A stretch of DNA of 64,000 nucleotides from Pseudomonas sp. MYb327 (GTDB taxonomy: Bacteria; Pseudomonadota; Gammaproteobacteria; Pseudomonadales; Pseudomonadaceae): NCBI RefSeq assembly GCF_040438925.1, contig NZ_CP159258.1, positions 3,052,001-3,116,000 of the forward strand. Reading direction: 5' to 3'. Position numbers and translations under genes: made by a program. Under the pieces are notes generated by a model that saw only the letters and a list, made by a program, of their open reading frames with translations, made no database searches and was not told the DNA's origin. Shown here piece by piece: positions 1,765 through 1,858 of this stretch (positions within the stretch are counted from its first letter, which is position 1; the number at the start of each line of letters is the position of its first letter).

Positions 1765-1785
1765 GTGACCCCTACCAAAGGTCAC
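1765..1785 (-). promoter_or_regulatory. thrS leader hairpin 1: tRNA-Thr(GGU) anticodon-arm mimic
   Basis: Read on the minus strand, GUGACCU pairs with GGGUCAC (six Watson-Crick pairs and a closing U-G) around a seven-base loop UUGGUAG. The loop has U at position 33, GGU at 34-36 and A at 37, so it matches a tRNA-Thr(GGU) anticodon loop in six of seven bases. It ends 19 bases before the thrS ATG, directly before the Shine-Dalgarno run. In E. coli, ThrRS represses its own mRNA by binding such a mimic. That this hairpin works the same way is inference. Confidence 0.6.
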
Positions 1786-1839
1786 GTGGGTTGGGATGAG
1801 CCAGTACAAGATCCGATCCAGGCCATTCAATGACGAACG

Positions 1840-1858
1840 CCTGCCTTACAGCGGCAGG
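1840..1858 (-). promoter_or_regulatory. thrS leader hairpin 2: tRNA-Thr(UGU) anticodon-arm mimic
   Basis: On the minus strand CCUGCC pairs perfectly with GGCAGG around a seven-base loop GCUGUAA. Positions 34-36 of the loop read UGU, the second common threonine anticodon, followed by AA; position 33 is C instead of U. It lies 54 bases upstream of hairpin 1 in the same leader. The E. coli thrS operator also has two stem-loops, one per ThrRS subunit, so a pair in one leader is more telling than either alone. Confidence 0.5.

What the first reader, a model, noticed from the sequence alone, without database searches (positions are those of the whole stretch)
1765..1858. thrS leader carries two tRNA-Thr anticodon-arm mimics
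Directly seen: a stem GUGACCU/GGGUCAC with a 7-base loop UUGGUAG (anticodon GGU) 19 bases before the thrS ATG, and a stem CCUGCC/GGCAGG with a 7-base loop GCUGUAA (anticodon UGU) 54 bases further up. Both loops have exactly seven bases and a threonine anticodon at positions 34-36. In E. coli, ThrRS represses thrS by binding a leader with two tRNA-like stem-loops. The likely reading is that Pseudomonas uses the same trick with two different Thr anticodons. I know of no description of this in Pseudomonas.
Basis: partly seen in the sequence, partly recalled or inferred. Interest (0 to 1): 0.75.

Follow-up and report, generated by a model that had tools for sequence, protein, structure and literature searches.

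The report
Pseudomonas thrS operator mimicking threonine tRNA
The start of the mRNA for threonyl-tRNA synthetase in this Pseudomonas folds into two hairpins that copy the threonine anticodon, most likely so that the enzyme can bind and shut off its own message, as is known from E. coli; the copies are strongly conserved in the genus, and the one next to the gene is found in many related bacteria.

Summary
The two hairpins are real and exactly where stated: minus strand, 1765-1785 (loop UUGGUAG) and 1840-1858 (loop GCUGUAA), before thrS at 1745. They are not chance. The second and third anticodon letters (G35, U36, which ThrRS reads) stay fixed while position 34 takes all four bases: on a ThrRS tree it changed at least 14 times in hairpin 1 and 9 times in hairpin 2, with no real change at G35/U36. 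Stems covary. A model made from Pseudomonadaceae alone finds the E. coli thrS hairpin (E 8.7e-8), so hairpin 1 is the homologue of E. coli operator domain 2. Hairpin 2 sits on a three-way junction that matches in 199 of 199 sampled genomes of the genus but in the class sample only in the window's own genome (1 of 114). The best reading is the known E. coli mechanism: ThrRS binds both arms and blocks the ribosome. Nothing here shows binding or repression. "Two different anticodons" carries no isoacceptor meaning. No Rfam family matches, and eight literature searches found no description for Pseudomonas. By-product: one related family has thrS leaders with three evenly spaced anticodon arms (22 of 30).

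The parts
1..1745 (-). thrS, threonyl-tRNA synthetase, 5' part (581 of 640 aa in the window)
   Evidence: translation; full length from L001; PDB matches to bacterial ThrRS, E 2.8e-301 (6vu9) and 4.8e-274 (1qf6)
1746..1764 (-). initiation region (domain 1-like) with Shine-Dalgarno AGGAGAGGAGG at 1760-1750
   Evidence: sequence; last 15 bases before the ATG identical in 110 of 110 leaders
1765..1785 (-). hairpin 1, tRNA-Thr anticodon-arm mimic (domain 2-like); loop 1778-1772, triplet GGU 1776-1774
   Evidence: model R1 hit E 4.1e-12, next best place in the genome 0.027; covariation; E. coli homologue found by family-only model
1786..1800 (-). conserved linker CUCAUCCCAACCCAC (domain 3-like, possibly part of a split ribosome-binding site)
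   Evidence: kept in 108 of 110 leaders, allowing a 3-base insertion and two C/T positions, while the stretch between it and hairpin 2 varies
1800..1899 (-). distal domain (domain 4-like): three-way junction carrying hairpin 2
   Evidence: model R2 hit E 6.2e-9 with the window itself not in the model; covariation; match in 199 of 199 genus genomes
1840..1858 (-). hairpin 2, second tRNA-Thr anticodon-arm mimic; loop 1852-1846, triplet UGU 1850-1848
   Evidence: loop tables; tree counts; helix 5
1894..1898 (-). 5' strand of helix P1 (CCAGU), pairs with ACUGG 1805-1801
   Evidence: helix 1: 94.9% of cells paired but almost invariant, so no covariation
1881..1887 (-). 5' strand of helix P2 (GGUUCGG), pairs with UCGGAUC 1816-1810
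   Evidence: helix 2: 4 of 7 pairs change on both sides in relatives
1859..1870 (-). hairpin P3 GGCC GCAA GGCU
   Evidence: helix 4; predicted fold
1824..1839 (-). extra hairpin CGUUCG UCAU UGAAUG of this species group, making the junction four-way
   Evidence: predicted fold only; the compact relatives are too short to hold it

Best explanation
This is the translational operator of thrS. After transcription the leader presents two arms that imitate the anticodon arm of tRNA-Thr. A ThrRS dimer that is not busy with tRNA-Thr binds both arms through its anticodon-binding domains, reading G35 and U36, and covers the ribosome-binding region just downstream of hairpin 1, so thrS is translated less. 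When free tRNA-Thr is plentiful it competes ThrRS off and translation resumes. Shown here: both hairpins, their conservation and covariation, the loop rule N34-G35-U36, their place before thrS, homology of hairpin 1 with the E. coli operator. Inferred from E. coli: binding, dimer bridging, ribosome blocking, competition by tRNA.
For: Exact hairpins at the stated place. Hairpin 1 covariation: 95.2% of cells paired and 17 double-change cells against 4.6 in shuffles, 0 of 500 shuffles as high. Loops chosen without any demand on the loop: in 62 unique segments G35 in 59 and U36 in 60, N34 = G, C, U and A; the four without NGU all score at the threshold. Hairpin 2, chosen by stem strength alone from 170 leaders: 47 unique hairpins, G35 in 46, U36 in 46, N34 U 25, C 15, A 5, G 2. 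Tree counts: N34 at least 14 (hairpin 1) and 9 (hairpin 2) changes; G35/U36 none in hairpin 1 and one each in hairpin 2, from the mis-chosen L128. A model from 14 Pseudomonadaceae hairpins finds E. coli thrS at E 8.7e-8, its only match up to E 1 in that 5-kb stretch. The best site in the own genome is thrS; all 29 fetched best-scoring loci of other class genomes lie directly before thrS. Leaders of four ThrRS paralogues have no R1 match up to E 5. ThrRS is identical to E. coli at 413 of 642 aligned positions; N575, R583, E600 and R609 are kept (their contact role is recalled). Reviews describe the E. coli operator with two anticodon-like arms (PMC7373986 section 23 read; passages of PMC11088916 and PMC9976931).
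Against: No binding, expression or transcript data. The start of the mRNA is unknown and no sigma-70-type promoter was found in 1600-2200, so it is inferred that hairpin 2 is transcribed. The leader is not more stable than shuffles (z about 0), unlike E. coli (z -3.26). The free-RNA prediction closes the hairpin-1 loop to three bases. For hairpin 1 two of five covariation measures are weak: pairs changed on both sides 3 against 1.6 (17 of 500 shuffles as high) and further pair types 9 against 8.6 (263 of 500). Helix P1 is nearly invariant and gives no covariation. Hairpin 2 was not found by script in L126 and L197, and looks replaced in L127. R2 gave no good match in 8 of the 43 family sources searched besides the paralogues (L191, L194, L197, L199, L201, L202, L203, L207), so the junction is not family-wide. 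ThrRS position 599 is R instead of K, and the anticodon-binding domain is the least conserved of the three parts compared (61 of 108).
Confidence: 0.88

Rival explanations
1. Only hairpin 1 works as the ThrRS site; the distal junction serves mRNA stability or positioning, and its NGU loop is a minor contact.
For: Hairpin 1 is found far more widely than the Pseudomonadaceae junction: R1 in 60 of 143 class genomes at E 0.05 against R2 in 1 of 114 at E 0.01, the own genome. Some family leaders with hairpin 1 lack the R2 junction or hairpin 2.
Against: G35-U36 of hairpin 2 stays fixed while its other loop positions and N34 change at least 5 to 9 times; the NGU loop survives on a wholly different stem in L199; additional NGU arms are enriched upstream in other families.
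Confidence: 0.15
2. A structured 5' UTR conserved for mRNA decay, ribosome standby or another RNA-binding protein, with no role for ThrRS.
For: No binding data; overall folding energy is not unusual; strong conservation of the linker and Shine-Dalgarno region, which need not be read by ThrRS.
Against: The loop rule NGU is that of threonine anticodons; the strong sites that were placed lie before thrS and none was found before four ThrRS paralogues; homology to the E. coli site described as bound by ThrRS.
Confidence: 0.05
3. A tRNA-sensing or attenuation element (T-box, leader peptide or terminator) acting on transcription.
For: Anticodon-like hairpins before a synthetase gene.
Against: No Rfam T-box or leader match at gathering; with E up to 5 only mir-965 and Pseudomon-groES, both far below gathering; the only terminator-like site in 1600-2200 is on the other strand; a T-box pairs a specifier codon with tRNA rather than showing an anticodon (recalled).
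Confidence: 0.01

Closest known systems
E. coli thrS translational operator (four domains, bound by ThrRS)
   Same: Place directly before thrS; proximal 7-base-loop hairpin homologous (23 of 32 bases identical, stems starting 40 and 42 bases before the ATG; found by a family-only model); second anticodon-like arm further up; linker between; ThrRS 64% identical.
   Different: Triplets GGU and UGU. In E. coli the proximal triplet is CGU; for the distal loop a review says CGU for both (PMC7373986), while I read UGU in a predicted 8-base loop AUUUGUUG. The distal arm sits on a three- or four-way junction instead of one long irregular hairpin; the predicted free energy is not unusual.
Yeast AspRS mRNA and other synthetase-binding anticodon mimics in mRNAs
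   Same: A synthetase binds an anticodon-like element in its own mRNA (PMC7373986 section 23; PMC9976931 passages; PMC6542539 search listing only).
   Different: Different synthetase, kingdom and fold; homology not expected and not tested.
T-box leaders
   Same: Cis-acting leader of a synthetase gene that responds to tRNA (recalled).
   Different: No T-box match; anticodon-like rather than codon-like loop; no terminator on this strand.

Membership tests
thrS operator bound by ThrRS (E. coli type) | Lies in the thrS leader directly upstream of the ribosome-binding site | tested here: met
thrS operator bound by ThrRS (E. coli type) | Proximal hairpin with 7-base anticodon-like loop carrying G35 U36, homologous to E. 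coli domain 2 | tested here: met
   R3, built from 14 Pseudomonadaceae rows only, finds E. coli K-12 thrS at E 8.7e-8; covariation
thrS operator bound by ThrRS (E. coli type) | Second anticodon-like arm upstream (domain 4) | tested here: met
   the surrounding fold differs from the predicted E. coli fold
thrS operator bound by ThrRS (E. coli type) | Unpaired linker used with the initiation region as a split ribosome-binding site | tested here: inconclusive
   the linker is conserved, but its pairing state and ribosome contact were not tested; the predicted fold even pairs it weakly with the Shine-Dalgarno region
thrS operator bound by ThrRS (E. coli type) | ThrRS with N-terminal domains and anticodon-contacting residues | tested here: met
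   142 of 224 N-terminal and 61 of 108 anticodon-domain positions identical; N575, R583, E600, R609 kept, K599 is R (contact roles recalled)
thrS operator bound by ThrRS (E. coli type) | ThrRS binds the leader, represses translation, and tRNA-Thr competes | not testable with these tools
   needs binding and reporter assays
T-box leader | T-box covariance model match and terminator/antiterminator | tested here: not met
Any Rfam family | Match at gathering score | tested here: not met
   window (four tRNAs elsewhere, none in the leader); four loci including E. coli thrS (only the downstream Phe leader and one tRNA matched)

The most novel reading that the evidence does not exclude
ThrRS operators are built from interchangeable anticodon arms whose number is set by lineage: one or two in most leaders seen here, and three, evenly spaced 34-38 bases apart, in one family of the same order. 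All arms keep G35-U36 and let position 34 drift, including AGU, which by recall no bacterial tRNA-Thr normally carries. Because the ThrRS dimer has two anticodon sites, a third arm would mean binding of more than one dimer or a choice of two from three, giving a graded sensor of free ThrRS. The Pseudomonas version, with its second arm held on a junction, is one solution in this series.
Probability: 0.45. Interest if true: 0.68.

Novelty: new member of a known kind. Interest (0 to 1): 0.5.

Why it matters
The thrS operator is a standard case of mRNA mimicking tRNA, yet in the material I could search it is described for E. coli only, and no Rfam family matches it. Showing that it spans much of the Gammaproteobacteria, that its loops follow the synthetase's identity rule (G35, U36) and not any particular tRNA, and that some lineages carry three arms, turns one model system into a natural series in which arm number, spacing and loop letters can be compared. 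It also gives Pseudomonas a testable control point for an essential enzyme.

Tried and rejected
Folding energy as evidence: z about 0 for the window leader, so I relied on covariation. Rfam: nothing at gathering in the leader; two weak matches (mir-965 E 0.025 on the other strand; Pseudomon-groES E 1.2) are below gathering and taken as chance. BLAST of the leader in E. coli genomes: no match; homology needed covariance models. A first regular-expression scan for hairpin 1 was faulty and found 1 of 236; replaced. One search demanded GU in the loop (216 of 236) and is circular for the loop; one search removed that demand. Model R1 was built from 42 of the 59 unique segments, E. coli included, so its E. 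coli match is not independent; R3 (14 rows) was made for that. The family alignment by MAFFT alone gave only two consensus helices, so a structure was named by hand on 40 of 57 compact leaders. The 17 left out, mostly the most divergent, were all searched with the resulting model R2: 15 match at E 8.1e-6 or better, L197 and L199 do not. L126 and L127 match although their NGU arm is lost, so an R2 match does not prove the mimic. Of the 47 sources, 35 match at 8.1e-6 or better; five further weak matches (L202 twice, L183, L082 at 407, window 61451; E 0.14 to 3.9) I take as chance. The 199 of 199 matches were not each placed relative to thrS. One search used strict filters and E 0.01, so distant forms of the junction may be missed. 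R1 outside the class: one weak match (G411, E 4.2e-4) among 200 genomes, not counted as real. Per-arm pair tables are contaminated for about four leaders by a shifted choice of arms and are not used. The tree used a thinned set of Pseudomonas rows (one in three, plus those whose hairpin-2 N34 is not U).

Literature: eight searches answered showed, in their listings, no description of a thrS operator in Pseudomonas or a survey outside E. coli; two original E. coli papers looked up are not held, so a comparison printed there cannot be excluded.

Full report
What is there. thrS runs leftwards from an ATG at 1745 and leaves the window at base 1. Its leader holds, in transcript order, a distal domain (1899-1800), a linker (1800-1786), hairpin 1 (1785-1765) and a Shine-Dalgarno region (1760-1750).

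Is it more than chance. In 110 leaders (30 loci and 80, the window's own genome included) 110 keep GGU in hairpin 1 and 110 keep UGU in hairpin 2, while the stretch between hairpin 2 and the linker varies. Of 237 loci then held, 236 leaders could be anchored (L183 not). With no demand on the loop, 219 of 236 reach the score threshold and give 62 unique segments: NGU in 58 (GGU 26, CGU 24, UGU 6, AGU 2); the four others lie exactly at the threshold. Hairpin 1 stems covary: UA to CG in 5 of 42 rows, CG to UA in 11 of 42; 0 of 500 shuffles reach the observed pairing, double-change cells or covariation score, though two further measures are weak (17 and 263 of 500). Hairpin 2, picked by stem strength alone in 170 of 179 family leaders (9 lacked the anchor motifs; one of the 179 is a paralogue leader), gives 47 unique hairpins with G35 in 46 and U36 in 46, and N34 in all four letters. 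Two leaders gave no hairpin (L126, L197); L128 was given a wrong one and L127 a chance one.

The loop rule. On a tree of 121 ThrRS proteins, position 34 changed at least 14 times in hairpin 1 (102 rows with a hairpin above threshold) and 9 times in hairpin 2 (61 rows). G35 and U36 never changed in hairpin 1, and once each in hairpin 2 because of L128. This is the signature of a site read by a protein that uses G35 and U36. It also means that the GGU/UGU pair in the window is not a choice of two isoacceptors. AGU loops occur, although by recall tRNA-Thr with A34 is not normal in bacteria, so the arms need not descend from tRNA genes.

The distal domain. On 40 compact leaders a three-way junction named by hand has 93.8% of cells paired, 9 pairs with changes on both sides against 3.8 in shuffles, 29 double-change cells against 10.0, and 0 of 500 shuffles as high; sliding the partners destroys it. 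P1 (CCAGU/ACUGG) is almost invariant and so neutral. The model made from it finds the window, which was not in it, at 1899-1800 with E 6.2e-9; in all 35 of 47 sources match at 8.1e-6 or better, and 12 do not: four paralogue leaders and eight divergent family leaders. It has a match in 199 of 199 genomes sampled in the genus and in 1 of 114 in the class, the own genome. So the junction belongs to the genus and its nearer relatives. The window's species group has a further small hairpin (1839-1824), known only from folding, which makes the junction cloverleaf-like. I do not read more into that.

Relation to E. coli. A model from 14 Pseudomonadaceae hairpins finds the E. coli K-12 thrS hairpin (GUGAUCU UUCGUGU GGGUCAC) at E 8.7e-8, its only match up to E 1 in the 5-kb stretch; 23 of 32 bases are identical and the stems begin 42 and 40 bases before the ATG. 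In the own genome the wider model R1 has one strong site, thrS (E 4.1e-12; next 0.027). In the class it matches 60 of 143 genomes at E 0.05, 45 of them below 1e-5, and all 29 fetched best-scoring loci of other genomes lie directly before thrS. In the phylum it matches 26 of 200 genomes at 0.001, 25 of them within the class. ThrRS paralogues with 58-68% identity (leaders L182, L183, L309, L310) lack the hairpin. Reviews describe E. coli ThrRS binding two anticodon-like arms and blocking the 30S subunit, with tRNA-Thr competing (PMC7373986 section 23 read; passages of PMC11088916 and PMC9976931). Rfam holds no family matching the window's or the E. coli thrS leader at gathering.

How it works. 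By homology the Pseudomonas leader is the thrS operator: free ThrRS binds both arms and hides the ribosome-binding region; tRNA-Thr relieves it. The anatomy is shown here; binding and repression are inferred. The main doubts are the unknown transcript start (no promoter-like site), the unremarkable folding energy, and the predicted closure of the hairpin-1 loop to three bases in free RNA, which binding would have to open.

Beyond the window. In 95 leaders outside the family that carry hairpin 1 with GU, other upstream hairpins with stems of 6 or more pairs and a 7-base loop have GU at 35-36 in 11 of 42 cases; shuffles give 0.95 (sd 0.83) of 18.1, so hairpins of every kind are somewhat raised but GU loops much more. 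In one family of the same order, 30 leaders were read out of 35 genomes with a match; 22 of 30 carry three NGU arms spaced 34-38 bases apart in a listing made without any demand on the loop. Of the other eight, two have two arms, four have one, and two (L368, L374) lack clean arms. Stems in that family vary with compensation (GCAAUCC/GGAUUGC, GCAACCC/GGGUUGC, GCAGCCC/GGGCUGC; seen by eye, not tested formally). The organisms are unnamed. L300, elsewhere in the order, has two copies of hairpin 1 in direct tandem. Three arms for a dimeric enzyme is the most surprising thing met here.

Verdict. Observation confirmed; interpretation supported as inference. For the window it is a new member of a known kind, not described for Pseudomonas in the papers I could search, with a distal domain of its own lineage. 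Interest is moderate; the arm-number series would raise it.

Noticed in passing
L351-L380 (30 leaders, family of G122), e.g. L355: thrS leaders with three evenly spaced (34-38 nt) anticodon-arm mimics and varying stems, 22 of 30.
   Followed up: partly
L211, L215, L218, L228, L264, L271, L281, L300: Other thrS leaders with two or three NGU arms, some as direct tandem copies of hairpin 1 (L300); L218, L271 and one arm of L215 were read by eye only.
   Followed up: partly
L182, L183, L309, L310: Second, 58-68% identical ThrRS genes in four Pseudomonadaceae genomes have no operator hairpin in their leaders.
   Followed up: partly
L145, L146, L148, L149, L212, L217 and others: A tRNA gene that looks like tRNA-Val (GAC) lies right before thrS in several gammaproteobacteria, but not in the window, where tRNA-Val (GAC) is at 17530-17606.
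   Followed up: no
L275, upstream of thrS: Terminator-like hairpin AGCUGUAC UUGGUUU GUACGGCU followed by U's, whose loop also reads GGU at 34-36; chance or an attenuator.
   Followed up: no
L239 (G000:C1:3400717-3400735): Second-best R1 match in the own genome looks like a terminator hairpin with an anticodon-like loop CUGGUAU, E 0.027; probably chance.
   Followed up: no
window 1786-1800 and 1750-1760: The conserved linker CUCAUCC could pair with GGAGAG of the Shine-Dalgarno region around hairpin 1; too little variation in Pseudomonas to test it.
   Followed up: no
window 2715-2927: Cold-shock-like protein gene (MSNRQTGTVKWFNDEKGFGF...) with a terminator-like hairpin after it (name recalled).
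   Followed up: no
window 4142-8557 (minus strand): Apparent ribose utilisation cluster: nucleoside hydrolase, RbsD-, RbsK-, LacI-type regulator- and RbsC-like genes (named by eye from the translations).
   Followed up: no
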